Assembly: GCF_900107015.1 (NCBI RefSeq)
Contig: NZ_FNOI01000006.1
Coordinates: forward strand, 1-64,000
DNA: 64,000 nucleotides
Direction of reading: 5' to 3'
Origin: Litoreibacter albidus
Lineage (GTDB): Bacteria; Pseudomonadota; Alphaproteobacteria; Rhodobacterales; Rhodobacteraceae
A model generated the notes under the pieces. The model was given only the letters and a program-made list of their open reading frames with translations. It did not search any database and was not told where the DNA came from. Shown here in pieces: positions 1-24,738 of this stretch. The position numbers and the translations under genes are program-made. The stretch's first letter is position 1. Each line of letters starts with the position of its first letter.

Positions 1-14
1 GATAAACTCAAACC

Positions 15-3334: not shown

Positions 3335-3360
3335 TCCCCCCTACTTCGAAAGGAAGAATC

Positions 3361-6073: not shown

Positions 6074-6102
6074 TAAAGCAAGTGACACAGGAGATTCTGC
6101 TC

Positions 6103-7775: not shown

Positions 7776-7776
7776 C

Positions 7777-8364: not shown

Positions 8365-9650
8365 TATCACTCGCCATCCTTTTCGGTGTGTTCTTCCTAC
8401 TTTTGCTCGTTGGCACGCCAATCATCTTTGCTCTTATGGGCGCTTCGCTGGTCGTTTTGCAATCAAATGACTTGCTGTCTTCGCAGTTGGTTTTACAGCG
8501 TATTTACGCGGGGCTGGACAGCTTTCCAATGTTGGCAATTCCGTTTTTTATGGCTGCCGGATCATTGATGGAACGCGGCGGAATTTCTCGTAGACTGGTT
8601 AACTTTTCGTCTTATCTGGTGGGGTGGATTCGCGGTGGGTTAGCTCATGTCGCCGTCATTGCTTCGACCATTTTTGCGGGTATTTCCGGGTCTGCCGTGG
8701 CGGATACTACCGCCATCGGATCAACCATGATCCCTATGATGGTGCGGCGCGGTTTTGATCCTGCTTTTGCAGCTTCTGTGGTTGCGGCGTCCGGCGTCAA
8801 TGGGCCCGTCATTCCGCCGTCCATCCCGCTTGTGCTTTACGGTGTCATTTCTGGTGTGTCTATCGGCGCGCTTTTCATGGGCGGCATTGTGCCTGGGCTG
8901 ATGATGACAATAGGCCTGATGGTCGTCATTTACATGAAAGCGAGCCGCGGCGACTGGGAAGTCGAAACAGAGCCGTTCTCGATGTCTGGCTTGATCACAA
9001 GCTTCATCTCAGCCATCGGGGCGCTTGTAATGCCTCTCATCATCGTTGGTGGGATTTTGGGCGGGATTTTCACAGCAACAGAGGCCGCTGTCGTGGCCAC
9101 GATTTATGCTTTGATAGCGGGGCTATTCATCTACCGCGAACTTCAGTTTTCGCAGCTGCCGGCGCTTTTCCACTCTGCTGCGCTTAATACGGGTGTTGTT
9201 ATGATGATTGTCGGCGTCGCCAATCTGGTGGGCTACGTTCTGACAGTTGAACAGATCCCGCTTGCCCTATCAAACTGGTTCTCCGATCACGTCACCAATG
9301 CGCTCGTCTTGTTGCTGGTGATCAATGTCCTGCTTCTTGTCGCTGGGTGTTTTTTGGACGGTGGGTCCGCGATCATCGTGTTCACACCTGTCTTGTTGCC
9401 TGTCACGCAGGCCTTCGGGATTGATCCCGTTTTCTTTGGCGTGATGATGACAGTTAATCTGATGATTGGCACAGTGACGCCGCCCGTGGGCCTATCCTTG
9501 TATATAGCGTGTGGCTTCGCCAACATTTCGATCCTGCAAATATGCAAGGCAATCCTGCCGTTTATCGCGGTTCACCTTGCTGTTCTCATACTCATTACCT
9601 TCTTCCCGCAACTTGTGCTGGCGATCCCGCAAGCACTCTACAATTACTAA
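8361..9650 (+). CDS. TRAP transporter large membrane subunit (DctM family)
   Basis: This 429-residue multispanning transporter belongs to the DctM/IT superfamily and is of normal length. Conserved blocks are PMLAIPFFMAAGSLMERGGI, HVAVIASTIFAGISGSAVADT, GVNGPVIPPSIPLVLYGV and GTVTPPVGLSLYIACGFA, which surround the substrate and sodium sites. Twelve or so membrane segments are expected. It is the catalytic membrane subunit that works with the preceding P and Q subunits. The isomerase gene starts 15 bp after the stop, with AAAAGGAACC as ribosome site. Confidence 0.93.
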   Translation: MISLAILFGVFFLLLLVGTPIIFALMGASLVVLQSNDLLSSQLVLQRIYAGLDSFPMLAIPFFMAAGSLMERGGISRRLVNFSSYLVGWIRGGLAHVAVIASTIFAGISGSAVADTTAIGSTMIPMMVRRGFDPAFAASVVAASGVNGPVIPPSIPLVLYGVISGVSIGALFMGGIVPGLMMTIGLMVVIYMKASRGDWEVETEPFSMSGLITSFISAIGALVMPLIIVGGILGGIFTATEAAVVATIYALIAGLFIYRELQFSQLPALFHSAALNTGVVMMIVGVANLVGYVLTVEQIPLALSNWFSDHVTNALVLLLVINVLLLVAGCFLDGGSAIIVFTPVLLPVTQAFGIDPVFFGVMMTVNLMIGTVTPPVGLSLYIACGFANISILQICKAILPFIAVHLAVLILITFFPQLVLAIPQALYNY

Positions 9651-9664
9651 AAAAGGAACCAATA

Positions 9665-10624
9665 ATGGCCACTAAGAACTCAATCCTCATGGGGACGCTC
9701 GGCAAATACTCCGACAGATTTCACACCTACCAACCCGCCCGCACATTCGAAGAACGTTTGGCTATTTCCAAAAAAACTGTTGGCGCGGATGGTGTCGAAC
9801 CAGTCTATCCGCAGGATCTCGGGCATGAGGGTGAGAAGGTGCAAATCGTTAAGGACTCCGGTCTTGATGTCTCTGCCGTCAACGTAAACCTGAAAGGCGA
9901 AGACGTATTTCGCGCGGGATCATTTACCAACCCGGACGCTGGCGTGCGCCGTCGGGCCGTAGATTATATGAAGCGGGCGATGGATATGTCAGCCGATTTC
10001 GGGGCGAACATGATCTCCGTTTGCCCACTGATTGATGGTAGCGATCATGCCTTTCACGTAGATCATATGGCACAATGGCGTTGGTCGATTGAAGCCTTTG
10101 AAGAGGTTGCTGCCCATAATCCTGATGTAAAAGTCTCAATCGAATACAAAGCCTACGAAGTCCGCAACCGGATCATCATGCCATCCATGGGGCGCACTTT
10201 GCATTTCTGTGACCGAGTCGGCGCAGACAACGTGGGCGTTACGATGGACCTCGGCCACGCCCTGATCGAACACGAAAGCCCCGCATCCGAGCTAGCAGTC
10301 GCCTTTGATGCTGGCCGTTTGTTCTATGTACACTTCAATGACAACAACCGCCAAGCGGACTGGGATATGCCCGTGGCCTCCGTCAACCTTTGGGAAACGC
10401 TGGAGACAATCCATTACATGGATACTCTCGGCTATAATGGTTGGATTGCGTATGATGTATTTACCCGCGCAGGCAACGGGCCCGAGGCCGTTGGATACAC
10501 GTTCGAAACCATGGACAATCTGCGCGCGCTGCTTGCCAAAATTGGGCCGAAAAAGATCAAGCAAATGATCGAAAGCGGTGATAGCGCTCTGACCACACGA
10601 GATTTGATCAAGGCGTTGCTATGA
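9665..10624 (+). CDS. Sugar phosphate isomerase/epimerase-type TIM barrel (first of two)
   Basis: The protein has 319 residues from the ATG at 9665; the frame extends upstream into dctM but without a ribosome site. It is a xylose-isomerase-like TIM barrel (AP-endonuclease family 2 fold). Candidate metal ligands are Glu in VSIEYKAYE, Asp/His in VTMDLGHAL, His in FYVHFNDN and Asp in WIAYDVF. This family isomerises or epimerises keto/aldo sugars with a divalent metal. A tail after about residue 285 (AKIGPKKIKQMIESGDSAL) extends beyond the barrel. It is translationally coupled to the next TIM-barrel gene (ATGA overlap). The substrate is unknown but should be imported by the TRAP system. Confidence 0.82.
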   Translation: MATKNSILMGTLGKYSDRFHTYQPARTFEERLAISKKTVGADGVEPVYPQDLGHEGEKVQIVKDSGLDVSAVNVNLKGEDVFRAGSFTNPDAGVRRRAVDYMKRAMDMSADFGANMISVCPLIDGSDHAFHVDHMAQWRWSIEAFEEVAAHNPDVKVSIEYKAYEVRNRIIMPSMGRTLHFCDRVGADNVGVTMDLGHALIEHESPASELAVAFDAGRLFYVHFNDNNRQADWDMPVASVNLWETLETIHYMDTLGYNGWIAYDVFTRAGNGPEAVGYTFETMDNLRALLAKIGPKKIKQMIESGDSALTTRDLIKALL

Positions 10625-11430
10625 TCGCTGGACTTGGTAGCTACGCGTTTCGCTGGTCTGTCGGTCACAAAGATCGCCGCCCCGAAGCGCCGATGACCGC
10701 GATGGACGTTTTAGATGTCGCGGCGGAACACGATCTTGGCGTAGTTCAATACGCCGACAACCTCCCCCTGCATAAGCTGGGGGAGGGCGAGCTTGACGCA
10801 CTTGCGACTGCTGCCCGTGCAAAGGGCATCGCGCTTGAACTTGGGACGCAGTCCTTTGACGCCGAAGAGGTGCGCCGCTATATCGAAATCGGGCAACGGA
10901 TCGGGGCCGGTATTTTGCGTGTAGCCCTCGATGCGCCTGACGCCAAACGACCTGTTCCAGAACTTGCGGCTGAATTTGTGGCCCTGTTGCCCGCCTTGAA
11001 AGCCGCCAATATTCGCTTGGCGATTGAGAACCACTTTAACTTTCCGTCGCGACGCGTTGTGGAGCTGTTGAAGCAGATTGATGACGAACAGGTTGGTGTG
11101 TGTCTTGATGTGGCTAATTCGATCTGTGCCGGTGAATGGCCGATGGAGACGGTGGAAATCCTTGCGCCGTATACCATCAATCTGCATCTGAAGGATTATG
11201 TTATCCAGCCAGACCCCTACGGTGTCGGGTTCAGCATCCACGGGGCACCACTGGGCACCGGGCGCACAGATATTGCGGCTGTTCTAGATGCTGTCGGGCG
11301 ACGTGACATGAGCGTAATCTATGAACATTGGCTGCATTGGCCCGGGGCATTTGATGCCGCGCGGAAGGCCGAACATAACTGGACGAACCAAAGCGTTAAA
11401 GTTCTTAAAGCTTCGGTTCAATCGCCCTGA
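10621..11430 (+). CDS. Sugar phosphate isomerase/epimerase-type TIM barrel (second)
   Basis: This 269-residue xylose-isomerase-like TIM barrel has Glu (RLAIENHFNF), Asp (GVCLDVANS), His (INLHLKDY) and Glu (SVIYEHWLHW) as the likely metal set. It differs clearly in sequence from the gene before it, so it is a partner rather than a recent duplicate. Its start overlaps the previous stop (ATGA). It is the last gene of the GntR-TRAP operon, and a strong terminator lies about 150 bp downstream. It probably performs a second isomerisation or epimerisation in the same pathway; 2-keto-myo-inositol dehydratase (IolE)-like chemistry is an alternative for such folds. Confidence 0.8.
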   Translation: MIAGLGSYAFRWSVGHKDRRPEAPMTAMDVLDVAAEHDLGVVQYADNLPLHKLGEGELDALATAARAKGIALELGTQSFDAEEVRRYIEIGQRIGAGILRVALDAPDAKRPVPELAAEFVALLPALKAANIRLAIENHFNFPSRRVVELLKQIDDEQVGVCLDVANSICAGEWPMETVEILAPYTINLHLKDYVIQPDPYGVGFSIHGAPLGTGRTDIAAVLDAVGRRDMSVIYEHWLHWPGAFDAARKAEHNWTNQSVKVLKASVQSP

Positions 11431-11576
11431 AAGCGCATAGCGTTTTTGCTTTTCACTGGCGCCGAGTGCTTCTTGTGCGATTGCTGCGCTTAGCTCCTTT
11501 AAGTTGCGGGACAAAGGGCGAAAAAGAGATCCGAAGATAGTTTATAAGCGGGACCAGTAACTCCCATTCACGATGT

Positions 11577-11623
11577 CCCCGCGCTCCGCAATGGCAGAGC
11601 GCGGGGAGCCTTTTCGGGCTTTT
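11577..11623 (+). terminator. Rho-independent terminator of the GntR-TRAP operon
   Basis: A perfect 10-bp stem pairs CCCCGCGCTC (11577-11586) with GAGCGCGGGG (11597-11606) around a 10-base loop. A second small hairpin AGCC-TTTTCG-GGCT and TTT follow. It ends transcription of the upstream operon about 150 bp after its last stop. Confidence 0.75.
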
Positions 11624-11651
11624 GGACCTGTAGCGGATCGTTACCGTTCCC

Positions 11652-11701
11652 TTGATGGCATTTGCTGCAATAAGTGAGTTGGACTATGGGACTGAAACGG
11701 A
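11652..11701 (+). mobile_element. Decayed left end of an IS3-family element
   Basis: This stretch aligns without gaps to the left end plus the first codons of the IS3-family element at the window start (minus strand, bases 324 down to 275): 40 of 50 bases agree by eye. The last 21 (GACTATGGGACTGAAACGGA and the G before it or nearly so) are essentially identical and include the orfA start codon. After 11701 the orfA reading frame is not preserved, so only a scar of a related element remains. Confidence 0.65.
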
Positions 11702-11994
11702 GGAACGATTGCCCGTGATATTGCCAATACCAAGCAGTCTGTAACTGAAGGCAGGGGCTAAAACGATGGGCTTGCTCACCAGAACGTTGTTGCTGATGTG
11801 TACCTAGACGACATCGTATATGCGAGAACTGCCTGCAATTTTAGTTGCATAGTTCATTTTGCGTGCTGTGAAATGTTCCCGCGTGTTCAAAAAAAAGAAG
11901 TTGATGAATTACCTGATTGTCATCGTCTTGTATAATATAATTTACAAAATGGTCCTAGCTAGTGCCCGAACGAAACTGCAACTGGAGTTGCAAG
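11702..11994 (+). promoter_or_regulatory. A+T-rich leader of the ugp-type operon, likely promoter region
   Basis: No gene is seen. The segment becomes strongly A+T-rich near 11885-11950 and holds overlapping TATAAT hexamers at 11931-11936 and 11936-11941. A TTGATG at 11901-11906 is too far upstream to be an ordinary -35 partner, so the exact promoter is uncertain. GGAG (11984-11987) is the ribosome site of the binding-protein gene. Confidence 0.4.
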
Positions 11995-13266
11995 ATGGGT
12001 GATAAAATGATTGCAAAAGTCGGAAAAATGTCTGGCGTAGGACTGCTGGCGCTGTTGGGGTCAACTATGTTGGTGTCAGCTGATGTTACTGTAGAATTTT
12101 GGCATAGTTTTGGGGGGGGCTCTGGCGAGGCGCTGGCCCAAATTATCGAGAACTTTGAAGCCGAAAACGATGGCATCACGATCGATGCGCAAGAGATCGG
12201 CAACTACAACGACATTGTGACCAAGCTTCAGGCGGCGATCCCTGCGCAGCGTGCACCGGATGCTGTGATTATGGAGGTTACGCGTTACGGTCTGTTCGCG
12301 GATCGCGGGGTATTGAAGGATTTGACTCCCTATGTGGATGCCGATCCTTTGAAAGATGATTTGTTTGGTTTTGCGCGTGAGGTCGGCGTTTACGAAGACA
12401 AGAACTACATTGTTCCGTTCAACTCTTCGACGCCGGTCCTATATTTCAACAAGGCGATCTTCGAACGTGCCGGGTTGAGTGAAGATACCCCGTTGAACAC
12501 ATACGATGATCTTTTGGCTGCGGCGCAGCAGATCACAGACACACTTGGCGATGAGGGCATCACGGGCATTGCTGCGCCGGGCCAGTTCGCGCGTTGGGGC
12601 CTGATTATGGGCAATGACAGTGATCTGATCGACAGCGTTTCTGGCGAGATCTTGCTAGATGCACCAAATACGATCGAAGCCTATGAATTCATGGCCTCGC
12701 TTGTGCATGAACACGAAGTCGCATCGCCGGATGGTGTGACGCAGGAAAACAACGGTCGTGATGCGTTTTTGGCTGGCCGTGTTGGTATGATGATCAATTC
12801 CACCGGTAATTATGGGCGTGCTGCGTCTTCTTTGGGCGACGATGCCGTTGTTGTGCCAATGCCCTGCAACAAGGTCTGCGCTGTGCCAATCGGTGGCGCG
12901 GGGATCGGGATTCTGTCGACCTCTGACAGCGAAGTTCAAGATGCCGCGTATCAGTTCATCAGTTTTGCAGCATCGGCTGAATCCAACGCTTTGTGGTTCT
13001 CCGAAACAGGGTACATGCCAATCAATCAGCAAACGGCACAGCAACCGCTTGCGATCGAAGCTCTGGCGGAAAAGCCGGGTATTGATGTCGCGATCAATCA
13101 GCTTGATTTCGCTCGCGGGCGTCCGCGTCCTCCGGTGGTGACATGGATGCGCGCGTCTGAATATGACCTGTGGCAGGCCATGGCACTGGGCCAGCGTGAC
13201 CCGTCTGAAGTCTTGACAGAATTCGCCGAGAGCACCCGTGCTGAAGCAGAACGCCTCGAGCGATAA
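11995..13266 (+). CDS. ugpB: Glycerol-3-phosphate-type ABC transporter binding protein
   Basis: The protein has 423 residues from the ATG at 11995 (GGAG 7 bases upstream); a GTG at 11962 is less well supported. A signal peptide (about residues 1-29, ending LVSA) precedes a family-1 solute-binding protein. UgpB-like landmarks are VEFWHSFGGGSGE, the nearly invariant IVPFNSSTPVLYFNKA, and ETGYMPINQQTA. UgpB proteins bind sn-glycerol-3-phosphate or glycerophosphocholine. The downstream glycerophosphodiesterase gene supports such a substrate. A 14-bp hairpin separates this gene from the permeases and probably lets it be made in excess. Confidence 0.85.
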   Translation: MGDKMIAKVGKMSGVGLLALLGSTMLVSADVTVEFWHSFGGGSGEALAQIIENFEAENDGITIDAQEIGNYNDIVTKLQAAIPAQRAPDAVIMEVTRYGLFADRGVLKDLTPYVDADPLKDDLFGFAREVGVYEDKNYIVPFNSSTPVLYFNKAIFERAGLSEDTPLNTYDDLLAAAQQITDTLGDEGITGIAAPGQFARWGLIMGNDSDLIDSVSGEILLDAPNTIEAYEFMASLVHEHEVASPDGVTQENNGRDAFLAGRVGMMINSTGNYGRAASSLGDDAVVVPMPCNKVCAVPIGGAGIGILSTSDSEVQDAAYQFISFAASAESNALWFSETGYMPINQQTAQQPLAIEALAEKPGIDVAINQLDFARGRPRPPVVTWMRASEYDLWQAMALGQRDPSEVLTEFAESTRAEAERLER

Positions 13267-13280
13267 CCGTCATTATCCTA

Positions 13281-13316
13281 TGGTGTGAGGCCCCATCTTG
13301 TTGGGGCCTCACACCA
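13281..13316 (+). terminator. Intercistronic hairpin between binding protein and permease genes
   Basis: TGGTGTGAGGCCCC (13281-13294) and GGGGCCTCACACCA (13303-13316) form a perfect 14-bp stem with an 8-base loop, then TTATTT. Hairpins at this point in ABC operons commonly act as partial terminators or 3' RNase barriers that raise binding-protein levels over the membrane parts. Confidence 0.7.
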
Positions 13317-13335
13317 TTATTTGGAAAGTAGATGC

Positions 13336-14205
13336 ATGCTCCGCCGTATGACACCATACCTTTTCGTCCTACCGCTTCTCGCGTTTATCGCGGTTTTTAC
13401 CTACGTCCCGATTGTCCAAAGCATGAATCTTAGCGTTCGTGAATGGGATTTTCTGTCGCCGACCAAGCCCTTTGTCGGGTTGGACAACTATCGGCTGCTG
13501 TTAGACAGTCGCGAGTTTTGGAATGCGCTGCGTGTGACGGCTGTTTTTGCAATTATATCTGTGCCGTTGCGCTTGCTTCTGGCGTTGTTCATCGCAACCC
13601 AACTGCTGCGCGAGACGTGGGTTTCACGCATCATGCGCGGGGCGTTGTTTTTACCGGCGGTGACATCGACGGTTGCAATTGGTGTGGTGTTCTCTTGGGT
13701 GTTCTCGACGGACTACGGCATGATGAACGCTCTGTTAAAGAGCATCGGATTACCTAAAATCGCGTGGTTGCAAGAACCACATGTCGCGTTGTGGGTGTTG
13801 ATATTTGTCAACACGTGGAAGCAGCTTGGCTATGACATCATAATCTACATCGCGGGGCTACAAGCGATCGGGCCCGAACTATACGACGCCGCCGCCGTGG
13901 ATGGCGGGCGTAAGGGTCATGTGTTCCGCCGGATCACGGTGCCGTTGGTGATGCCGACGACGTATTTCTTACTGATGATCTCTGTGATCGAGGCGTTTCA
14001 GGTTTTTACCATTGTCGACGTTATGACCAAAGGTGGCCCTGCGGGTGCGACTGATATGTTGGTTAACATGCTTTACCGGGTCGGTTTCAACCTGTTCGAC
14101 ATCGGTGTTGGTTCAGCTTTGGCAGTTTTGCTTTTCATCCTCCTCATTACTTTGGCGGTCATCAAATCCCGCGTTATTGGTCGAAAGGTGCACTATGAAG
14201 CCTAG
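13336..14205 (+). CDS. ugpA: ABC transporter permease, UgpA type
   Basis: The protein has 289 residues from the ATG at 13336, which has GGAAAG 7 bases upstream; the longer frame from 13285 would start inside the hairpin. Six membrane segments are expected. The inner-membrane EAA loop is seen as ELYDAAAVDGGRKGHVFRRITVPLVMP. It is of the MalF/UgpA class and pairs with the following permease. It overlaps that gene by 11 bp. Confidence 0.88.
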   Translation: MLRRMTPYLFVLPLLAFIAVFTYVPIVQSMNLSVREWDFLSPTKPFVGLDNYRLLLDSREFWNALRVTAVFAIISVPLRLLLALFIATQLLRETWVSRIMRGALFLPAVTSTVAIGVVFSWVFSTDYGMMNALLKSIGLPKIAWLQEPHVALWVLIFVNTWKQLGYDIIIYIAGLQAIGPELYDAAAVDGGRKGHVFRRITVPLVMPTTYFLLMISVIEAFQVFTIVDVMTKGGPAGATDMLVNMLYRVGFNLFDIGVGSALAVLLFILLITLAVIKSRVIGRKVHYEA

Positions 14206-15004
14206 TAACCCCCTCATCTCAGGGCTGGCGCTTGCCGCTGGGCTGCTGTTTCTGTCACCGGTGCTCTATTCCATCTGGATGTCGTTCCAAACGGCGGACG
14301 CCTATTATACCGGCACCATAGATTTTACGCTTAGCAACTTTGAACTGGCCATCGGACAGTACAATTTTGCGCGCTATCTGCTGAACTCGATAATTGTTTC
14401 AGGCCTCGTCACACTCATTGGTTTGGCCGTGGCCACCTGCGCGGCGTTCGCCTTTGCGCGTTACACTTTTCGGGGCAGCAACCTGCTGTTTGGCGCGGTT
14501 GTGGCGACTTTGATGATTCCCAGCCATATCACGCTCATCCCCAATTACCTGACTTTGGCAAAAGCGGGGTTGCTGGACACTTACGCAGGGCTGGTCTTGC
14601 CTGCGATTTCCAACGGATTCGCGGCCTTCTTCCTGCGTCAGTATATTCGTGGGATCCCGCGCGCGCTGGACGAAGCGGCCTATATGGATGGGGCGTCCCC
14701 GCTTAAGGTTTTGTGGCGCGTGATTATCCCGCTGTCTAAACCTGCGATCCTGTCGATGGGTCTCTATATCTTCATATCAGAATGGAACAATTACATCTGG
14801 CCCCTTGTCGCGATCGGACGAGAGGACCTCTACACCCTGCAAATCGGTTTGGCGCGCCTCTACCGGGTGAATCCGGGCGAAGACATCATTAATTGGCCGC
14901 TCGTTATGGCAGCTTCCACCATTACTATTTTGCCGGTTATTGTCGGTTTTGTTTTGGTCGAGCGTCACTTGATCCGCGGCATGATGATGGGTGCCGTGAA
15001 ATGA
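14195..15004 (+). CDS. ugpE: ABC transporter permease, UgpE type
   Basis: This 269-residue permease begins at the ATG 14195, within the end of the upstream gene and with GAAAGG as ribosome site. The MalG/UgpE class is shown by the N-terminal membrane segment, the SNFELAIG periplasmic loop start, and the EAA loop ALDEAAYMDGASPLKVLWRVI. Six membrane segments are expected. The stop overlaps the glycerophosphodiesterase start (ATGA), so the two are translationally coupled. Confidence 0.88.
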   Translation: MKPSNPLISGLALAAGLLFLSPVLYSIWMSFQTADAYYTGTIDFTLSNFELAIGQYNFARYLLNSIIVSGLVTLIGLAVATCAAFAFARYTFRGSNLLFGAVVATLMIPSHITLIPNYLTLAKAGLLDTYAGLVLPAISNGFAAFFLRQYIRGIPRALDEAAYMDGASPLKVLWRVIIPLSKPAILSMGLYIFISEWNNYIWPLVAIGREDLYTLQIGLARLYRVNPGEDIINWPLVMAASTITILPVIVGFVLVERHLIRGMMMGAVK

Positions 15005-15774
15005 CACAGACTAGGACAAAACATATGACACGCATTGCATCCCACCGTGGCGGCACATTGAATTATGGTGACAGCACACCAACCGGTTTTCGCGCAACCG
15101 CAGCCCTTCCGTTGGAAGAAGTGGAATTCGACGTTCATCCGAGCCGCGATGGTGCTATCATGGTGCATCACGATGCAACGCTGGATCGCACCACAGATCG
15201 AAGCGGTGCATTGATCGATTCAACAGAGGCCGAAATACGCGCTGCCCGTATTAATTATGGTGTAGACGAGCACCCCATGTCATTGGCTGAACTTTGCGCC
15301 ATTTATCAAGACAGCACTGTCAATTTAAGATGCGAATTCAAACCGGATCAAAATGGCATACCTTATAGTGATTTCGTACCAAAAGTGATCGAAGAGCTGT
15401 CGCGTTGTGGCCTGTTAGAACGTACGGGATTTTCGTCCTTCTTGGTGGCCAACCTTGATGAAATCGCTCGTCACTCTTCACGCCCCTTTCTGTGGCTCGT
15501 CAGCCCGCCAGTGCAAAAGCAACTTGGCATCGCAACGGTGATTGAACTGGCCCAAAACCACTGCATCCCCGAAATCGGCCTCAACATCGACCACACAGAT
15601 TCCGACGCCATGGCGCAGATCACCGGAGCCGGCTTGGACTTCGGATGTTGGGCGGCCCATAGCGGTGCCCAAATTCGCAAGGCCTTGACGTTGGGGGTCA
15701 AGGTCTTCACCACAGACCGCCCCCATTTGGCCATCGAGGTCCGCAACACATTCAATCATGAGGCGACGAAATGA
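15001..15774 (+). CDS. ugpQ: Glycerophosphodiester phosphodiesterase
   Basis: This cytosolic GDPD-family enzyme has 257 residues. It would cut imported glycerophosphodiesters to glycerol-3-phosphate and an alcohol. The catalytic HRG (ASHRGG), the metal pair EFDVH (VEFDVHPSRDG) and the second catalytic His (VHHDATLDRTTDRSG) are all present. A second ATG at 15025 is possible, but the ATGA overlap with the permease stop favours 15001. Its place inside the operon, between permease and ATPase genes, is unusual but fits a UgpQ role. Confidence 0.88.
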   Translation: MTQTRTKHMTRIASHRGGTLNYGDSTPTGFRATAALPLEEVEFDVHPSRDGAIMVHHDATLDRTTDRSGALIDSTEAEIRAARINYGVDEHPMSLAELCAIYQDSTVNLRCEFKPDQNGIPYSDFVPKVIEELSRCGLLERTGFSSFLVANLDEIARHSSRPFLWLVSPPVQKQLGIATVIELAQNHCIPEIGLNIDHTDSDAMAQITGAGLDFGCWAAHSGAQIRKALTLGVKVFTTDRPHLAIEVRNTFNHEATK

Positions 15775-16850
15775 GCGCGATCACCTTCACCGACATCCGC
15801 AAATCCTATCCCGGTGGGGCACAGGTTTTGCACGGCATCTCGATGGATATCCAACATGGCGAATTTATTGTAATTGTCGGGCCCTCAGGCTGCGGAAAGT
15901 CGACATTGCTCCGGCTTTTGGCGGGGCTTGATCCTTGCGAGCACGGGGAACTTTATATCGATGGCAAGCGCGCCAATGATATGGCGCCGCAAGACCGTGA
16001 TATCGGGATGATCTTCCAGAACTATGCGCTCTATCCACATATGACGGTGTTGGAAAACATCGCCTTTGGATTGGAATTGCGCAAAGTGCGAAAGGCAGAG
16101 CGCCTTTCGCGGGCACGTGCTGTAGCGGATACTCTACAGCTCACTCCCTACCTAAGCCGCAAGCCCGGGGCGTTGTCTGGCGGGCAGCGGCAGCGCGTCG
16201 CGATGGGCCGTGCAATGGCACGCGATTGTTCTACTTTCTTGATGGATGAACCGTTGTCAAACCTCGACAATGCGCTGCGCGTTGCCATGCGTACAGAGAT
16301 CAAAGACCTGCACCGCCAACTTGGCGCAACGATCATCTATGTCACTCACGATCAAACCGAGGCGCTTTCGCTTGCAGATCGAGTGGCCGTCATGAAAGAC
16401 GGGCATTTGCAGCAGTTCGACACACCGGACATGATTTATGATCAACCGGTTAACCGTTTTGTAGCGGGTTTTCTGGGTTCGCCAGCGATGAACATCGTAC
16501 CCGCAGATTGTATCAAAGCTTGGGAAGGGCCGCGCGACGTTGATGTCGGCTTTCGCCCCGAGGCACTGAGCGTCCATCGTTCCGCAGTCGAGGGGCCGAC
16601 CATTCAGGCTCAGGTTGTGCTGTCTGAAATGACGGGCGCGACGTTTATCGTTCATTGCGAAAGTCAGGCTGGCCGGTTGTCGGCGGTTGTTGCGCGGGGT
16701 GGGGATCTGCCGCAAGATGGCGAAACAGTATGGCTATCCCTGGATCCATCCCAACTGCTTTGTTTTGACGCGAAGACGGGCGACCGATCCGATCATTGTA
16801 CTCGACCCACCAAAAGGGCACCGAAGTCATTTGCCGCAATGACGGCCTAA
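15771..16850 (+). CDS. ugpC: ABC transporter ATP-binding protein, UgpC/MalK type
   Basis: The protein has 359 residues. It carries Walker A GPSGCGKST (about residues 37-45), a Q-loop (IFQNYALYPHMTV), the signature LSGGQRQRVAMGRAMAR, Walker B FLMDEPLSNLD and the H-loop YVTHDQTEA. A C-terminal TOBE/MalK regulatory part follows from about residue 235 (VGFRPEAL, and the Thr/Gly-rich EMTGATFIV). It energises the two permeases. The start overlaps the phosphodiesterase stop by 4 bp. Confidence 0.92.
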   Translation: MSAITFTDIRKSYPGGAQVLHGISMDIQHGEFIVIVGPSGCGKSTLLRLLAGLDPCEHGELYIDGKRANDMAPQDRDIGMIFQNYALYPHMTVLENIAFGLELRKVRKAERLSRARAVADTLQLTPYLSRKPGALSGGQRQRVAMGRAMARDCSTFLMDEPLSNLDNALRVAMRTEIKDLHRQLGATIIYVTHDQTEALSLADRVAVMKDGHLQQFDTPDMIYDQPVNRFVAGFLGSPAMNIVPADCIKAWEGPRDVDVGFRPEALSVHRSAVEGPTIQAQVVLSEMTGATFIVHCESQAGRLSAVVARGGDLPQDGETVWLSLDPSQLLCFDAKTGDRSDHCTRPTKRAPKSFAAMTA

Positions 16851-16875
16851 CGCACAGCAGGATTAATAACGACAT

Positions 16876-17754
16876 ATGAATAACCCCAATCTTGCTTCTG
16901 ATATCTCACAGATCATCACGCAAAACTTCGGAAAATTAACCGATGCCGATACGCGAATTTTGAAAGTCTTAACCAGTGACCCGATCCGTGGCGCATTCGA
17001 GAATAGCACAGAAGTGTCATCGCGAGCGGGGGTGCATCCTGCATCTGCAGTGCGTCTTGCGCGTCGTTTGGGGTTCTCGGGTTATCCTGAATTCCGGTCG
17101 TTTTTGCAAAACAGTTTGATGGAGGGGCAGGGGGAGTATGCGGACCCGACAGCACGGATCGCCGCACGGATTGCGCGCGCCGGAGAGGGTGGATTGTTGT
17201 CATCGCTTATAGACAGCGAAGTGACTGCGCTGGAACATTTACGCGAAAGTGTCCGCGATGCACAAATACGGGAGTTTGCTGAGGTGCTATTGGGCGCACG
17301 GCGGATTTTTACCGCGGGCACAAGTCATGGCACCGCACTGGCGAAACTTATGGCAATGCGGTTACGCCGATCGGGGTATGATGCGGTCGATTTGGGCGGT
17401 GTCGGACAACATCAGATTGAGTGGGCTTATACCATGACGGATCGTGATGTTTTATTCCTGAGCTGTTTTCGGGGGACGACGCAGCAACTTAGGCATCTTA
17501 CAGACATCGCAGCTGAGCGCGGTGCCACATGCCTTTTGTTATGCGACGTAGATGAAGATTATTTGAAGGGGGAGAAGAACAAACAAATTTGCGTTTCCCG
17601 TGGGGGGGCAGGAGAATCGCAATCTTTGGTCGTGCCGATGACCATCGCGAACACCATTATCCTCGACCTAGCGAGCATTGACGCCGGTAAAACGATGCGT
17701 TCGCTAAATGCCTTCAAACGGGTCAGAGAAAGTTATCGAAGCGCATCTAGTTAA
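16876..17754 (+). CDS. MurR/RpiR-family transcriptional regulator
   Basis: The protein has 292 residues. The HTH_6 domain lies in the first 85 residues (LTSDPIRGAFENSTEVSSRAG, PASAVRLARRLGFSGYPEF). A SIS phosphosugar-binding domain spans about 130-265 (RRIFTAGTSHGTALAKLMAMRL, DVLFLSCFRGTTQQL). It lies 25 bp after the ATPase gene and is probably the local regulator of the ugp-type operon. It would sense a phosphorylated ligand such as glycerol-3-phosphate or a derivative. In enterobacteria ugp is under phosphate (PhoB) control, so a SIS-domain regulator here suggests carbon-source control. Confidence 0.88.
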   Translation: MNNPNLASDISQIITQNFGKLTDADTRILKVLTSDPIRGAFENSTEVSSRAGVHPASAVRLARRLGFSGYPEFRSFLQNSLMEGQGEYADPTARIAARIARAGEGGLLSSLIDSEVTALEHLRESVRDAQIREFAEVLLGARRIFTAGTSHGTALAKLMAMRLRRSGYDAVDLGGVGQHQIEWAYTMTDRDVLFLSCFRGTTQQLRHLTDIAAERGATCLLLCDVDEDYLKGEKNKQICVSRGGAGESQSLVVPMTIANTIILDLASIDAGKTMRSLNAFKRVRESYRSASS

Positions 17755-18190: not shown

Positions 18191-20032
18191 TTGTATATTC
18201 AGCGTCTCAAGATTTCAGGCCTGCGTGGGGTGCAGAACGCAGACATTACTTTTGGAAAACATTCCGTTCTTGTGGGGCCGAACAACAACGGCAAGACAAC
18301 GATTATTGAGGCTCTTGCCTTACTGCTCGGAAGAGACCGATTGGTTCGGCGCTTGACTGAACATGACTTTCATAAAAGCAGACCCATCGAGACATCTCGA
18401 ATCCTAATCATTGCCACCGTCACAGGATTCCCAGAGAATGACCCGCAGCATAGCCCATCTTGGTTTGCGATTGGTCGCGGAGGCGTTGAGAAGTGGCTCA
18501 ACCCAAATACAGGCAGCCTTGCCGCATCAGCAGACGATCAGCACACTGAGCTAAGTGTTCAGATCGCTTTTTCGGCCCGATTTGATCTCCAGGAACTCGA
18601 GGCCGAGACCGTCAGGTTCTTTGTGGATGACGAAGCAACTCTTGGTGATCCATTCCACGAAGACACTGTTGTTACGCCGATTTCCTCGAAGACGCTTCAA
18701 GAACTTGGCTTCTTCATGGTCCCCGCGTCCCGAACATGGGACAAATGGATTTCGTTCACTTCTGAGCTTTTTCGGCGTCTCGTTGCAACATTGGGTGGCC
18801 TCCCTGCGACTGCTGTACGCGATGCAAGAGAACGCCTTTGGGAACCGGAAGCAGGTCAGAAACTAGAAGAACAAGACGGCCTTACAACGATTGTTGAGCA
18901 GGCCAATGATGAACTTAGAAAGCTCATGCCATCATCACCAAGGCTTCAGCTTCGTATAACAGGGACGGACAGCAATTCAGTCCTCGAAAGCGTCGTACCA
19001 CATTTTGCCCACGGGGACGGTCCAACCCTCCCTTCCGCCCGGCAAGGAACTGGTTTGACTTCCTTGCAAAGTCTTCTGCTACTGATGCAATTCGGCAAGG
19101 CCAGAGCAGATGCGAACAAGTCATTTGTCCTCGCGGTAGAGGAGCCAGAGCTGCATATTCAACCTTCTCAACAAAAACGGCTCGTCAACAGGCTAAACGC
19201 GCTCTGCGATCAGACGATTGTCACCACCCACTCACCGCTGGTTGCAGCGATGTTCCCTGTCGAAGCAACCTATTTTGTTTCTAACGACGATGGTCAGATT
19301 TCTGTCTCTCCATTGTCAAAGACAGCACCCGCTGGTCCGACCAATCACAAGCAACACCTCTTTTTTGCTTGGCGACAAAAGCTAATTGCCGCGCTGATGC
19401 ATCAGCGTGTTCTGATACCAGAGGGTATCAGCGATGTAGCTTGGCTAGAGGCGCTCCAAACCGCTTTGGAACTTAGGCAAAGTTGGGACTCGCCTGAGGT
19501 CGAACAGTCGAAGTTCTCGACGTTTGTTGGGGTCGTGCCGACAGACGACGCAAAGATCGCTGAGACGCATGAAGTGGTCAGACGTGTCCATCATAATTGC
19601 GCAATCCTTGTTGATGGAGATCAAGCCGGAAGGGGTTACCTAACGGAATTGAATGAGGCGGATCCATCGCCTAGCGCGGCAATCATATGGCCAACAGATT
19701 GGAAAATTGAACACGTGGTCACTTGGATCGCGGAAGCAAGCCTTGCACAAGTTTTGCCCCAGTTAGCTGAGGCCAATAACACCGCCATCGGCGATGCGGA
19801 GGAGCTTTCTGCTTTCTTGGAAGGTAAGAAGTCCTACGCCCCCACACAAGAAATCACCTCGGCAATTCTGATGGGTGAAGCCGCATGCCGCAAGCGGGCG
19901 GCCCAGCTGCTCAATGCACTTTGTGATACTCTGCTTGAGCCATCAGTCCAGAGTTCTCCACTTTTCGTCCGAGAGACCGAAGACGGTGCTGCTATGCCGA
20001 CCTTCCGGTTCGTGCCTCCCGATGACGTTTGA
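18191..20032 (+). CDS. gajA: OLD-family ATPase/TOPRIM nuclease (Gabija GajA-like)
   Basis: The protein has 613 residues, starting with TTG. An ABC-type ATPase domain comes first: Walker A GPNNNGKTT (29-37), signature-like SARQGTGLTSLQS (282-294), Walker B LAVEEPELHIQP (313-325) and switch His in TTHSP (345-349). A C-terminal TOPRIM nuclease domain follows with Glu411 (LIPEGISDVAWLEAL) and Asp475/Asp477 (ILVDGDQAG). It overlaps a small UvrD-like helicase gene by 11 bp. This pairing is the Gabija anti-phage arrangement, in which GajA is a nucleotide-sensing nuclease. It is somewhat longer than the best-studied GajA. A stand-alone OLD protein or a related defence pair is the alternative. Confidence 0.85.
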   Translation: MYIQRLKISGLRGVQNADITFGKHSVLVGPNNNGKTTIIEALALLLGRDRLVRRLTEHDFHKSRPIETSRILIIATVTGFPENDPQHSPSWFAIGRGGVEKWLNPNTGSLAASADDQHTELSVQIAFSARFDLQELEAETVRFFVDDEATLGDPFHEDTVVTPISSKTLQELGFFMVPASRTWDKWISFTSELFRRLVATLGGLPATAVRDARERLWEPEAGQKLEEQDGLTTIVEQANDELRKLMPSSPRLQLRITGTDSNSVLESVVPHFAHGDGPTLPSARQGTGLTSLQSLLLLMQFGKARADANKSFVLAVEEPELHIQPSQQKRLVNRLNALCDQTIVTTHSPLVAAMFPVEATYFVSNDDGQISVSPLSKTAPAGPTNHKQHLFFAWRQKLIAALMHQRVLIPEGISDVAWLEALQTALELRQSWDSPEVEQSKFSTFVGVVPTDDAKIAETHEVVRRVHHNCAILVDGDQAGRGYLTELNEADPSPSAAIIWPTDWKIEHVVTWIAEASLAQVLPQLAEANNTAIGDAEELSAFLEGKKSYAPTQEITSAILMGEAACRKRAAQLLNALCDTLLEPSVQSSPLFVRETEDGAAMPTFRFVPPDDV

Positions 20033-21347
20033 CTTTTTTGAAGGGCCTGCTGGGTCAGGAAAGACCTACAGCATGGTGGCTCACGCTCGTCAATTGATCG
20101 CAAACGATGCGTTGGGTGAAGGTCAACGTATGCTTGCACTTACCTTCATGAATGGTGCGCGACGAAGGCTGACAGAAAGTTTAAACGCCGAAGCTTCATT
20201 CAGGCGGAAGTTCGACTGTCTCACTTTTGACTCTTTCGCCCAAACACTGGTCAGGCGACGAGACGCTAAACTAACCGACGAAGTGCGGCAGCAGGCCGAA
20301 GAGTTGGGTCAATTTCACGGTCCTTGTTTCTTGGCTGGTGAACTATTGAACGATCAAGAAGTACGTCGTTGGGTGGCCAGAACTTACCCCGTGGTGTTGG
20401 TCGATGAGGCTCAAGACCTCGATGTGCATCGGCAAGGCATAATTCTTGGTTTGAAGGAGTGTTGCACGACTGTTGTTGCCGCAGACAGTTTCCAGTGCTT
20501 GAGTGATGGCCAAGAAACGGCGGACTTCATCGATCGGTTACTAAACGCGGGAACCACCCACACCCTGGCCCAAAGTCACCGAACGAACAAGGAAGGTTTG
20601 CTGGCAGCAGCTTTGGCCGTGAGGAACGGTGAAGACATTCGTGCCGTATTGAATGAGGAAGCTATTGGGAAGACTAATAGGGTTCATTGGGTCGGCGAAG
20701 GCATGGAACTCGTGGAAGTTCCAGCCACGGCAAAAAATTCAGGATTGCTCGCATGGAATCTGGCATTTCAATTGAGACTGGGCGCTGAAGAAGTTGCACT
20801 TCTCACTCCAGATTCAACGAGCACGATTATACAGAACGCAATTAGTACTGTCGCAAACACGCAGGGGCCATGGCCGCACAAAGCGTTTTCAGTTAGTTGG
20901 GAAGGCGGAGATAACAACGTTGCAGGCGAACTGACTGAAGCAATAGGATTTCCAGCCTCAGCTTCATACGACGAGGTTTGTGCATTGTTGGAAGAGCACT
21001 CGGCGCAGCCAATGGTCAAAACAGTGGACCGGCGCATCCGCAGACTTCACAGGGTGACAGGCCAAAGCGAATTCGAAAAGGCTCAATTAGTTTCCTTTAT
21101 CTCCGATGCGGTCAGAACAAACACACGCCTTGGCTTCAAGAAAAGTGCAAAGATCAAGGCCATGTCCATCCATGGAGCAAAAAACAGAGAGTTCGACAGG
21201 GTTATCGTTCTGTGGCCGCAATCAGCAACTGGAAGCGACGAACATAAGCGGCGATTGCTATACAACGCCATGACCCGCGCGAAGAGTCATTGCACAATTA
21301 TCGTTCTTGGAAACGGGCGACTAGATTCAGCTCCTTTCGCGACTTGA
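20022..21347 (+). CDS. gajB: UvrD-like SF1 helicase (Gabija GajB-like)
   Basis: The protein has 441 residues from the ATG at 20022, inside the end of the nuclease gene; the 49 extra codons upstream belong to another frame. SF1A motifs are in order: I EGPAGSGKT (7-15), Ia ALTFMNGARRRL, II VVLVDEAQDLD, III VVAADSFQCL, IV LAQSHRTNKEG, V KAMSIHGAKNREFDRVIVLWP (shortened here to its core) and VI LLYNAMTRAKSHC. It is much shorter than UvrD or Rep, as expected for GajB, which works in complex with GajA. The overlap suggests fixed stoichiometry. Confidence 0.83.
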   Translation: MTFDFFEGPAGSGKTYSMVAHARQLIANDALGEGQRMLALTFMNGARRRLTESLNAEASFRRKFDCLTFDSFAQTLVRRRDAKLTDEVRQQAEELGQFHGPCFLAGELLNDQEVRRWVARTYPVVLVDEAQDLDVHRQGIILGLKECCTTVVAADSFQCLSDGQETADFIDRLLNAGTTHTLAQSHRTNKEGLLAAALAVRNGEDIRAVLNEEAIGKTNRVHWVGEGMELVEVPATAKNSGLLAWNLAFQLRLGAEEVALLTPDSTSTIIQNAISTVANTQGPWPHKAFSVSWEGGDNNVAGELTEAIGFPASASYDEVCALLEEHSAQPMVKTVDRRIRRLHRVTGQSEFEKAQLVSFISDAVRTNTRLGFKKSAKIKAMSIHGAKNREFDRVIVLWPQSATGSDEHKRRLLYNAMTRAKSHCTIIVLGNGRLDSAPFAT

Positions 21348-21477: not shown

Positions 21478-22536
21478 ATGAAAACACGCGGCGAAGCCAT
21501 CACGGAAGATGCAGAGCATACACTTCACAAACTTACGGTTCTCACCCATCAATCCTTTTCTCGAGCAGATCTATCGGCACTGATCGAGCCTTTCACATCA
21601 CGCCTTGAATACTACCTAAAATCCGTCGTTTTTCCGACAATCAGTCGCAGAACGAATCTCAATGATCTGATTGACAATCTTTCATCATTGGGTTTAGCGG
21701 CTCCTCAAGTGACGTCCCTGCACACACTGCGGCAGCTATACAACAAGTCAAAGCACGACCCTGATGTTGATCTAAAGTCTCAAGAGTGTATCCGTTCGTT
21801 TAAAGCTGCTGTCGTTGCTCTTCGCGCGATCACAACACTTGGCATAGCTTCGATTGATGCACCTCAAGAGCCAAGTTTTAACACGGTCGTTTATGTTGGC
21901 TTGTGGGACCACTACGTCGGCGGAGAAACGGAAGTCGGTTTGTTTTTGCCTAGCAACCATTGGATGGGAACGACGCCCATCAGCACCTTTCATTTACACT
22001 GGTCGAGTTGGGATCACCTAAAACCTGCTCTAGCTGATCATCCGCGTTATTCGAGGGGTGAGGAAGCATTAGGCTCGACCCTTTGGAAGTCATTTTCCGA
22101 TGAGGGGGACTTTCTTGACGCAGGTGTTTGGGAGGGGGATGTGCGAGAACTATTGGAAGTACTTTCTGCGCACAATGACGAGAGCCTAGAAGAAGCGGTA
22201 ATTCCATTTTTGGCTCGCCGGAATAACCTGATCTCAGTCGGCATCGCGCTTGTTTCTGCTACCGTTGACACAGTCCGCGCTATCCCTTCTGCAAATGAAG
22301 TGGATCTTCGAGAGTGCATCTCTGAACGCGCTAAGACGGAATACGCGGCAGAGGTACAAACCCCTCATGGCCAAAAGATACTAGACAGCGTGATACATTG
22401 CGTCGAAAGCGTTCCGCACAATGAACGCGTCGCTATATCGGGGCCTTCATTTCGCATTTACTCAGAAGAGGAAGACGGGGAATTGGATGTCCCAGTCAAG
22501 CTTTTGGGAACAACTCTGACCTGGCTAGTTTCATAG
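21478..22536 (+). CDS. Unrecognised protein downstream of the Gabija-like pair
   Basis: I do not recognise this 352-residue protein. The first 120 residues look all-helical and end in LHTLRQLYNKSKHDPD. An Arg followed eight residues later by His (RQLYNKSKH) is reminiscent of HEPN-like helical domains, but the spacing is not the canonical R-x4-6-H. The middle is mixed (VVYVGLWDHYVGGETEVGLFLP) and the C-terminus acidic (EEEDGELD). There are no membrane segments or signal peptide. GCAGGA lies 7 bases before the ATG. It follows the helicase gene by 130 bp in the same direction, so it may be an accessory or an independent defence gene. Confidence 0.7.
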   Translation: MKTRGEAITEDAEHTLHKLTVLTHQSFSRADLSALIEPFTSRLEYYLKSVVFPTISRRTNLNDLIDNLSSLGLAAPQVTSLHTLRQLYNKSKHDPDVDLKSQECIRSFKAAVVALRAITTLGIASIDAPQEPSFNTVVYVGLWDHYVGGETEVGLFLPSNHWMGTTPISTFHLHWSSWDHLKPALADHPRYSRGEEALGSTLWKSFSDEGDFLDAGVWEGDVRELLEVLSAHNDESLEEAVIPFLARRNNLISVGIALVSATVDTVRAIPSANEVDLRECISERAKTEYAAEVQTPHGQKILDSVIHCVESVPHNERVAISGPSFRIYSEEEDGELDVPVKLLGTTLTWLVS

Positions 22537-22736: not shown

Positions 22737-24134
22737 TCAGCGCTCTGGAGCGTCTTCGGGCGCACTGCTCGAGGCCACTCTTGAGGGCTGCGACTGGTAT
22801 TGATCCCGCAGATGAACTGCAGTCTGATCGATGCTAGGGTACACGGTGGTTGTATTGATATTAATCCGGTCGAGCTGAGCGAGTATGCGCTCTTTTTCAC
22901 GAATCGTGACCCGGCTGATTTCGATTCCGTCCTGGCCCGCATCGGGCAGCGTCGCCTCTTGCCCGAACAACAGGAAGGCGCCGGATTGCGATTTGATGCG
23001 CGTGTTGGTTTGTTTCGCCTTCACGCAGACGATGGACCCAAGATCGTCTGGGATGATCCGGCCCTCAAAAAAGCCCTTCTCTGACTTGATGTGGTGAAGC
23101 AGCTTTCCGACAACGTCGGTCTCATTAAACGTGTCCAAGTCGAGGCTGAGATCAACCTCGTTCTTCTGCGCGTAGGTAAGGTTAGAAAGGTTCGACAGGC
23201 AACTAACGGTATCGGAATCGTAGTATTTCAAGCCACTTGATGCGACATGAAAGACAATGACCTCACCATCTGTCTTGGGCTTGCTGGAGCAGGCGAAAAA
23301 CAATGCCACTAGCGGATTGCCGGAGATATCAAGCAGACGCGTCGGCAGACCGTAGTGCTGCATTCGCACAAGGCGATCGAAGCAATACTGGTCACCCTGG
23401 AACTCATCATGATGCGCGATCAATAGTTCTTTGCACAGGCGATCCTCGCTTGGCATGAATTGCCAGTCGCCGTTATCCCATTTGCGCAGAAGCGAAGGTG
23501 TAAGTTCATAAGTGACATCTCCGTGGCCACGGAAGAAGGTCTCGGTCGACGGTTTTACAGGCGAGTCGTAAAGCAATTGAAGGAACGACTCCACGCTATC
23601 GGCTACGCCAAGAACCTTCTTGTCACGAGGCGGGGGCAGAATTGCTGCCCCGATGACAGCGGTCGCCTCGTGACTCGCGATTAGATCGGCAAGATCAGGT
23701 TTACAATTGGCCAATCTGGACAACACTTCTTGCGCGTCGCCTTCCCGGACTGCCCAGTGTGTGCGGTAAAGTTGGAACTTATCTGCGCCGAAAACCGATC
23801 CGGCTGTCTCCATGTCATCGAAGGTAACTTCGCCAAAGTCGATCTGCGTCTCGAAGGTCATGGAGACCTCCTTGCGCCCACTTGTGATGTTCGAGATCCA
23901 ACCATACTTGATAAGCATAGAGACGGCGTTTCCGGCTGGCTGTATCTCGCTACAGAGAAATGTCGGCAGTGTTTCGAGAAAAGCGGTGGCATCGACATCT
24001 AGGTTTTCAAGGCGCTTCTCCATGTCAGAGGGCGTGTATTCGAACATGCGACCTCGGAGCATTGTGACAACATCGACGTTCCCATCGACTTTTTCCCAAT
24101 TGCCGAATGAGATGTAGTTGAAGCTGTCCGCCAT
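22737..24134 (-). CDS. FRG-domain protein
   Basis: The protein has 465 residues. An FRG domain (named after its conserved Phe-Arg-Gly) spans about residues 195-310: TFFRGHGDVTYELTPSLLR, then the characteristic MQHYGLPTRLLDISGNPLVA and LFFACS. The N-terminal 190 residues are unassigned. They may recognise a partner or trigger. FRG-domain proteins are widespread in bacterial and phage genomes, often beside defence genes, and have no firmly established reaction. AAGGAA precedes the ATG. It points towards the Gabija-like cluster and closes the island before tRNA-Gly. Confidence 0.8.
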   Translation of the reverse strand: MADSFNYISFGNWEKVDGNVDVVTMLRGRMFEYTPSDMEKRLENLDVDATAFLETLPTFLCSEIQPAGNAVSMLIKYGWISNITSGRKEVSMTFETQIDFGEVTFDDMETAGSVFGADKFQLYRTHWAVREGDAQEVLSRLANCKPDLADLIASHEATAVIGAAILPPPRDKKVLGVADSVESFLQLLYDSPVKPSTETFFRGHGDVTYELTPSLLRKWDNGDWQFMPSEDRLCKELLIAHHDEFQGDQYCFDRLVRMQHYGLPTRLLDISGNPLVALFFACSSKPKTDGEVIVFHVASSGLKYYDSDTVSCLSNLSNLTYAQKNEVDLSLDLDTFNETDVVGKLLHHIKSEKGFFEGRIIPDDLGSIVCVKAKQTNTRIKSQSGAFLLFGQEATLPDAGQDGIEISRVTIREKERILAQLDRININTTTVYPSIDQTAVHLRDQYQSQPSRVASSSAPEDAPER

Positions 24135-24526: not shown

Positions 24527-24601
24527 GCGGGCGTTGTGTAATGGTTAAGACCTCAGTTTTCCAAACTGAAGATGCGGGTTCGATTCCCGCCGCCCGCTCC
24601 A
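24527..24601 (+). tRNA. tRNA-Gly (anticodon UCC)
   Basis: The acceptor stem GCGGGCG (24527-24533) pairs with CGCCCGC (24591-24597). A discriminator T and encoded CCA (24599-24601) follow. The anticodon loop TTTCCAA gives anticodon TCC, reading GGA glycine codons. The T-loop GTTCGATTC is standard. The last 44 bases are repeated at 24695-24738, so this tRNA has served as an integration target. Confidence 0.95.
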
Positions 24602-24738
24602 AAATATCTTTTCCGACACATTACCTGCAAAATCACGCTGTCGATCTTGTCAACTATTTGAAATAAAACGATTTATAGAGATTTGAGCGTAAGCTTTCCA
24701 AACTGAAGATGCGGGTTCGATTCCCGCCGCCCGCTCCA
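24558..24738 (+). repeat. 44-bp direct repeat of the tRNA-Gly 3' end (att-like scar)
   Basis: Bases 24558-24601 (anticodon loop to CCA of tRNA-Gly) are repeated exactly at 24695-24738, 93 bp further on. Integrases that use a tRNA 3' end leave exactly this: an intact tRNA on one side and a 3' fragment on the other. Only 93 A+T-rich bases with no gene lie between, so whatever integrated has been lost or trimmed. The repeat coincides with the change from A+T-richer accessory sequence to G+C-rich core-like sequence. Confidence 0.85.

What the first reader, a model, noticed from the sequence alone, without database searches (positions are those of the whole stretch)
18191..21347. Gabija-like anti-phage system (GajA nuclease and GajB helicase)
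An OLD-family ATPase with intact Walker and TOPRIM residues overlaps by 11 bp a compact UvrD-like helicase with all SF1 motifs. This pair defines Gabija. Sequence lengths differ from the well-studied Bacillus system (longer nuclease, shorter helicase), so it may be a divergent subtype.
Basis: partly seen in the sequence, partly recalled or inferred. Interest (0 to 1): 0.75.

Follow-up and report, generated by a model that had tools for sequence, protein, structure and literature searches.

The report
Gabija anti-phage pair, compact helicase
Two overlapping bacterial genes encode a likely DNA-cutting enzyme and a partner helicase that match the already known Gabija virus-defence system, in a branch whose helicase is shorter than in the best-studied example.

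Summary
gajA (18191-20032, 613 aa) and gajB (20022-21347, 441 aa) overlap by 11 bp and are open. PADLOC profiles rank GajA first for the ATPase (E 4.9e-49) and GajB first for the helicase (5.4e-19). Toprim residues E411, D475, D477, K547 and the helicase motifs are conserved. The pair stays together in relatives: 7 of 8 genome loci (the eighth is cut by its contig end) and 10 of 10 plasmid loci opened. dN/dS is 0.08-0.16. This is Gabija, a known system, so interest is low. 'Divergent subtype' has some substance: in a tree of 22 pairs, 14 form one side in both proteins (100/100); their helicases are 404-445 aa, against 568-606 aa in the other eight. Sequence similarity to solved Gabija is weak, the helicase is nearer UvrD than BcGajB, and no defence was tested. 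Two further genes lie next door: orf3, of no known family, and an FRG-domain gene matching PADLOC's candidate PDC-S15. They look like neighbours in a defence region, not Gabija parts.

The parts
18191..20032 (+). gajA-like gene: OLD-type nuclease, N-terminal ABC ATPase and C-terminal Toprim, 613 aa, TTG start
20022..21347 (+). gajB-like gene: compact UvrD-like SF1 helicase, 441 aa
20022..20032 (+). 11-bp overlap of the two genes, pointing to translational coupling (inferred)
   Evidence: same overlap in L012, L013, L039
21478..22536 (+). orf3, 352 aa, no known family; optional neighbour, not counted as part of Gabija
   Evidence: no family above cut-off; beside gajAB in 1 of 8 relatives; other relatives in L038 and L049
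22737..24134 (-). FRG-domain gene, 465 aa, PADLOC candidate defence gene PDC-S15; neighbour
   Evidence: E 5e-99; PF08867, E 7.3e-19
24527..24601 (+). tRNA-Gly (TCC), at the right edge of the low-GC region; context
24692..24738 (+). 47-bp repeat of the tRNA-Gly 3' end (98%), candidate integration scar; context

Best explanation
The pair is a Gabija anti-phage system (class 2 OLD nuclease plus UvrD-like helicase). Shown here: gene order, overlap, conserved ATPase, Toprim and helicase residues, co-occurrence across relatives, purifying selection. Inferred from published work on B. cereus Gabija: GajA forms the core assembly and GajB docks on it; GajA's Toprim site cuts DNA with two metal ions and is held back by cellular nucleotides; infection, by lowering nucleotides or exposing DNA ends, releases it, and phage DNA is cut or infection aborted. 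The branch here would do this with a shortened helicase (probably less of subdomains 1B and 2B), so its docking and helicase pairing may differ in detail from the B. cereus 4:4 complex (inference).
For: PADLOC GajA and GajB rank first. 18 of 18 aligned ATPases (window included) hit GajA profile PDLC00086 and 16 of 16 aligned helicases hit GajB profile PDLC00104. Profiles against PDB: GajA chains 3e-19, GajB chains 7.2e-17 over profile positions 5-418. Foldseek: 4 of the best 5 rows for the gajA model are GajA. Columns E411, D475, E507 and K547 are kept in 18 of 18 rows of A1. The helicase lies next door in 7 of 8 genome loci and 10 of 10 plasmid loci opened. The compact group is one side of the tree in both proteins, 100/100. 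dN/dS 0.08-0.16. A SieB-type superinfection-exclusion gene follows gajB in 2 relatives.
Against: No phage or nuclease test. The best GajB profile match is partial (best stretch residues 8-162, profile 16-163 of 471). NCBIfam gives no family above its cut-off; its best for gajA is retron PtuA (2.9e-12). Single-sequence phmmer finds GajA chains only at 4.4e-4 to 9.3e-4, behind class 1 OLD 6P74 (7.8e-10) and PtuA (3.1e-6). By profile, 6P74 also scores slightly above GajA (5.6e-21 against 3e-19). The helicase lies nearer to UvrD, PcrA and Rep than to BcGajB by profile (8.2e-24 against 7.2e-17) and by Foldseek (rank 1 against rank 28). The gajA model is weak (pLDDT 58.8). In the other alignment (A5, 13 rows with viral relatives) E507 and K547 are not listed as invariant. 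The Toprim spans 72 residues from DxD to Lys, against 109 in BcGajA by the numbering in PMC10822852.
Confidence: 0.9

Rival explanations
1. An OLD-plus-helicase defence system of its own: like Gabija in parts, but with a different trigger or assembly because of the short helicase and the shorter Toprim.
For: Helicase shortened between T68 and D128 (56-60 against 89 and 99 residues) and between P263 and A386 (122-128 against 209 and 211) in 14 of 14 branch rows, compared with 2 long rows; long branch between the two groups; motif V reads AKNREF in 11 of 14 and AKNRQY in 3 of 14, not AKGKEF/AKGKQF.
Against: GajA and GajB profiles still rank first; catalytic columns kept; gene order and overlap as in Gabija.
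Confidence: 0.06
2. A longer operon: gajA, gajB and orf3 act together, orf3 being a third subunit or regulator.
For: orf3 follows 130 bp downstream on the same strand and does so again, 92% identical, in Salipiger L016.
Against: Of 8 relatives only L016 shows orf3; L019 ends too early to tell, the other 6 have no match. In plasmids only one record holds an orf3 relative, and it is none of the 10 gajA loci opened. That relative, L049, follows a methylase, an LmuB-like and an HNH gene.
Confidence: 0.03
3. A housekeeping DNA-repair pair, not a defence system.
For: Both domains are common in repair enzymes; VIA-align ranks SMC and Rad50 heads first for the ATPase part.
Against: Rare and patchy: 3 of 394 sampled family genomes with gajA at E <= 1e-20, the own one included; not found within about 17 kb on the gajAB side of araC in 5 congeners opened; decayed copies in L016 and L018; defence-type neighbours.
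Confidence: 0.01

Closest known systems
Gabija of Bacillus cereus VD045 (GajA 578 aa, GajB 494 aa; PDB 8SM3, 8JQ9, 8J4T)
   Same: ATPase-Toprim nuclease with UvrD-like helicase; Toprim E, D.D and K; Walker A and DExQD helicase box
   Different: GajA 613 aa, GajB 441 aa; shorter Toprim from DxD to K; smaller helicase stretches, probably 1B and 2B; low sequence similarity
The 'long' pairs of this sample (L047, L048, L050, L051, L054, L055, L056, L058), probably the group behind PADLOC PDLC00086 / PDLC00104 (inferred: best E among aligned rows 4e-268 and 4.2e-224, row not named)
   Same: Same gene order; GajA 21-26% identical
   Different: Helicase 568-606 aa; second Asp of DxD is Q or K in the 4 of 4 distant rows of A1
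Ruegeria pomeroyi DSS-3 SPO_RS20185 / SPO_RS20180 (megaplasmid NC_006569.1)
   Same: 91% and 90% identical pair, same 11-bp overlap
   Different: Annotated only as AAA family ATPase and ATP-binding domain-containing protein; other neighbours
Class 1 OLD of Thermus scotoductus (6P74)
   Same: ATPase-Toprim protein with similar profile score
   Different: Single gene without helicase (PMC10568477, passages)

Membership tests
Gabija (class 2 OLD system) | GajA: N-terminal ABC-type ATPase with intact Walker motifs | tested here: met
   PF13175 E 1.8e-23; K35 and E318 kept in 18 of 18 rows
Gabija (class 2 OLD system) | GajA: C-terminal Toprim with E, DxD and catalytic Lys | tested here: met
   E411, D475, D477, K547 in 14 of 14 branch rows; BcGajA E379, D432, D434, K541 read. 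The pairing with BcGajA numbers is my inference from motif order, not an alignment through that region
Gabija (class 2 OLD system) | UvrD/PcrA/Rep-like helicase gene directly adjacent | tested here: met
   11-bp overlap; PF13538, PF00580; UvrD fold, Z 27.2, rmsd 4.2, 323 aligned
Gabija (class 2 OLD system) | Recognised by GajA and GajB profiles above rivals | tested here: met
   hmmscan of PADLOC-DB: 4.9e-49 and 5.4e-19; PADLOC's own pipeline and cut-offs were not run
Gabija (class 2 OLD system) | Helical insert in the Toprim that marks class 2 (PMC10568477) | tested here: inconclusive
   DxD to Lys 72 residues against 109 (Bc) and 107 (Bp) from numbers in PMC10822852, so it may be reduced; model too weak to place an insert
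Gabija (class 2 OLD system) | GajB with subdomains 1A, 1B, 2A, 2B | tested here: inconclusive
   Model pLDDT 82.4; stretches that probably hold 1B and 2B are short; domain borders not computed
Gabija (class 2 OLD system) | 4:4 GajA-GajB assembly | not testable with these tools
   No complex prediction offered
Gabija (class 2 OLD system) | Nucleotide-gated DNA cleavage and phage protection | not testable with these tools
   Needs bench work
PARIS (AriA-AriB) | AriA is the best profile for the ATPase | tested here: not met
   AriA E 7.2e-23 against GajA 4.9e-49; the partner gene is a helicase
Class 3 OLD (retron) | Reverse transcriptase beside the OLD gene | tested here: not met
   Pfam scan of 7 proteins between 16876 and 27740 lists no reverse transcriptase at E <= 0.01; no scan for the retron RNA was made
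Class 1 OLD | Stand-alone gene | tested here: not met
   Helicase adjacent here, in 7 of 8 genome loci, the eighth being cut, and in 10 of 10 plasmid loci opened

The most novel reading that the evidence does not exclude
A proteobacterial Gabija subtype in which a GajB cut down in subdomains 1B and 2B docks on GajA without the GajB-GajB contact of the B. cereus octamer, so that substrate sensing rests mainly on GajA; the place right after gajB takes exchangeable extra defence genes (orf3 here, SieB-like in others).
Probability: 0.2. Interest if true: 0.45.

Novelty: new member of a known kind. Interest (0 to 1): 0.2.

Why it matters
It adds an alphaproteobacterial branch to Gabija, with a 91%/90% identical pair in the marine model strain Ruegeria pomeroyi DSS-3. 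The naturally short helicase could show which parts of GajB the system can do without.

Tried and rejected
Single-sequence phmmer of gajB and orf3 against PDB found nothing at the limits used; a family profile was needed for gajB. Viral contigs searched with the narrow alignment A3 gave no relative; the broad A1 gave 11.

Considered and rejected: PARIS, retron and class 1 OLD (see membership test). The tRNA-Gly repeat as the border of a Gabija island is not shown: both copies lie right of the pair, 137 bp apart start to start, and no third copy with up to 3 mismatches is in the window.

orf3 as an HEPN-like protein was only a thought from its sequence; no call supports it (Pfam to E 5 gave one hit, E 0.085, below its cut-off). 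BcGajB is not among the 50 VIA-align rows shown for the helicase, which excludes nothing. The consensus promoter scan found no more sites than shuffles (2 against a mean of 3.2); terminator-like sites were 8 against a mean of 5.2.

Left out of the trees: L010 and L011 (helicase cut by the locus end), L016 and L018 (broken or partial), L019 (contig end), L052 (locus ends), L053 and L057 (the first 60 aa shown equal those of L050), L059 and L060 (partial), and the 19 of 29 plasmid records not opened. L043 was used with its annotated start, which lacks Walker A; without it the compact range is 420-445 aa. The tree tool warned that long branches meet in the GajA tree (L047 with L056 and one more; L042 and two more with the window and six more) and that L048 (both trees) and L043 (GajB) have unusual make-up; roots are midpoints only.

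Full report
Observation. The two genes are as described. gajA runs 18191-20032 (+, TTG start, 613 aa) and gajB 20022-21347 (+, ATG, 441 aa); the overlap is 11 bp. In Pfam the first is AAA_15 (E 1.8e-23) and AAA_21 (5.8e-16), the second UvrD_C_2 (5.1e-13) and UvrD-helicase (3.3e-11).

Identity. PADLOC models put GajA first for gene 1 (PDLC00086, 4.9e-49; AriA 7.2e-23, Old 1.1e-22) and GajB first for gene 2 (PDLC04173, 5.4e-19; PDLC00104, 7.3e-19; RTasHel 8e-13). Of the 18 ATPases aligned, window included, 18 match PDLC00086; of the 16 helicases aligned, 16 match PDLC00104. NCBIfam gives nothing above its cut-offs for the four genes scanned; its best for gajA is PtuA, 2.9e-12. Single-sequence phmmer against PDB ranks 6P74 (7.8e-10) and PtuA (3.1e-6) ahead of GajA (4.4e-4). 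A profile of the 18 finds GajA at 3e-19, after class 1 OLD 6P74 at 5.6e-21. A profile of the 16 finds BcGajB at 7.2e-17 across most of its length, after UvrD at 8.2e-24, with PcrA and Rep also ahead.

Structure. AlphaFold2 with 13 rows gave a poor gajA model (pLDDT 58.8, pTM 0.53); Foldseek still ranks GajA in places 1-4 (E 1.6e-19 to 1.1e-17, TM to query 0.35-0.38) and 6P74 fifth. VIA-align puts SMC and Rad50 heads first (Z 22.0, rmsd 4.1, 307 aligned) and GajA 8x5i_D at Z 18.8 (rmsd 12.5, 369 aligned, model 1-577). The helicase model is better (pLDDT 82.4, pTM 0.71): UvrD first (E 9.1e-16), BcGajB 8sm3_B rank 28 (1.0e-11); VIA-align 4c2u_A Z 27.2, rmsd 4.2, 323 aligned.

Catalytic residues. 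K35, E318, H347, E411, D475, E507 and K547 are kept in 18 of 18 rows of A1; D415 and D477 in 14 of 14 branch rows, while the 4 distant rows have E and Q or K there. In the 13-row alignment A5 with viral relatives, E411 and D475 stay invariant but E507 and K547 are not listed. PMC10781630 and PMC10822852 (passages) name E379, E383, D432, D434 and K541 in BcGajA. My pairing of these with E411, D415, D475, D477 and K547 is by motif order.

Relatives. A pattern scan of the 84,980-genome collection, which reaches close relatives only, gave 8 loci; 7 of 8 have gajB next door, the eighth ends inside gajA. Two of the 8 are decayed: L016 is interrupted in both genes, L018 keeps only pieces. In plasmids 29 records match gajA; I opened 10 of 29, and in 10 of 10 the next gene is annotated as an ATP-dependent helicase or ATP-binding domain-containing protein. 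Of 11 viral-contig loci I listed ORFs in 9; 8 of 9 have a 570-761 aa ORF overlapping the end of gajA or right after it, and L052 ends too early to tell. Six of these eight were aligned and keep the helicase motif columns; the other two were not tested. In the class sample 3 of 385 genomes match gajA at E <= 1e-15, own included, the other two at 26-27% identity. In the family, 3 of 394 sampled genomes have gajA at E <= 1e-20 (own, a genome I take to be L012's, one distant) and 4 of 394 have gajB; two of these four show only part of gajB and no gajA in the stretch fetched.

The compact branch. In trees of 22 pairs, the 14 pairs with a helicase of 404-445 aa lie on one side of a branch with support 100/100, and the 8 with 568-606 aa on the other, for both proteins. 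The shortening sits between T68 and D128 (56-60 against 89 and 99 residues) and between P263 and A386 (122-128 against 209 and 211) (long values from 2 rows). By the BcGajB borders given in PMC10822852 these are probably parts of subdomains 1B and 2B (inference). That paper has the 1A and 1B domains contacting GajA, so docking may differ here. The sample is mostly proteobacterial and B. cereus is not in the trees. PADLOC already holds GajB profiles of 431 and 471 positions. My two literature searches on subtype and group (listings only) showed no paper on such a branch, which is weak evidence.

Selection. dN/dS is 0.082-0.100 for gajA (3 of 4 comparisons gave a value) and 0.085-0.156 for gajB (4 of 4, one with saturated dS 4.9); for orf3 0.21 in 1 of 2.

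Surroundings. orf3 (21478-22536) has no family and no match in the 393 other family genomes sampled. It lies beside gajAB in 1 of 8 relatives; relatives of it lie in a Mesorhizobium plasmid after a methylase, an LmuB-like and an HNH gene and in one viral contig. The FRG gene (22737-24134, -) matches PDC-S15 at 5e-99. In L013 and L018 the gene after gajB is SieB-like (2.2e-09, 1.6e-10), though PADLOC has no match for it. GC is 0.50-0.55 up to 24 kb and 0.58-0.67 beyond 26 kb. The step falls at a tRNA-Gly with a 47-bp repeat of its 3' end. Of 31 genomes searched with the araC protein, 15 matched, own included; I opened 5 of the other 14, and within about 17 kb on the gajAB side of araC none shows gajA, gajB, orf3, FRG or rpiR at E <= 1e-10. 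So the pair sits in an accessory region.

Mechanism. Known Gabija: GajA tetramer with four GajB, nucleotide-inhibited DNA cleavage (PMC10822852, abstract passage and passages; PMC10781630, passages; review PMC10568477, passages). A 2025 preprint (PMC12407980, abstract and outline) proposes that Gabija acts on linear DNA devoid of RecBCD. I expect the same kind of action here (0.9); every functional step is inferred.

Verdict. A genuine, ordinary Gabija system of a compact-helicase branch.

Noticed in passing
window 21478-22536: orf3, 352 aa, no known family; relatives lie beside gajAB in Salipiger L016 and after restriction-type genes in Mesorhizobium L049: a candidate unassigned defence gene.
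   Followed up: partly
window 22737-24134 (-): FRG-domain protein, 465 aa, PADLOC candidate PDC-S15 (E 5e-99).
   Followed up: partly
window 24527-24738: tRNA-Gly (TCC) followed 90 bp later by a 47-bp copy of its 3' end, at a sharp GC step (0.52 to 0.63): possibly the scar of an integrated element that was lost or shrank.
   Followed up: partly
L013 11165-11749; L018 8667-9248: SieB-like superinfection-exclusion gene right after gajB in two relatives, where the window has orf3.
   Followed up: partly
L016 8001-11163; L018 8001-8643: Decayed gajAB copies: interrupted frames in Salipiger, a deletion remnant in Leisingera.
   Followed up: partly
window 1-17754: Low-GC stretch with TRAP transporter, sugar-binding and ABC transporter genes, aldose epimerase and several regulators left of the pair; its left edge lies outside the window.
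   Followed up: no
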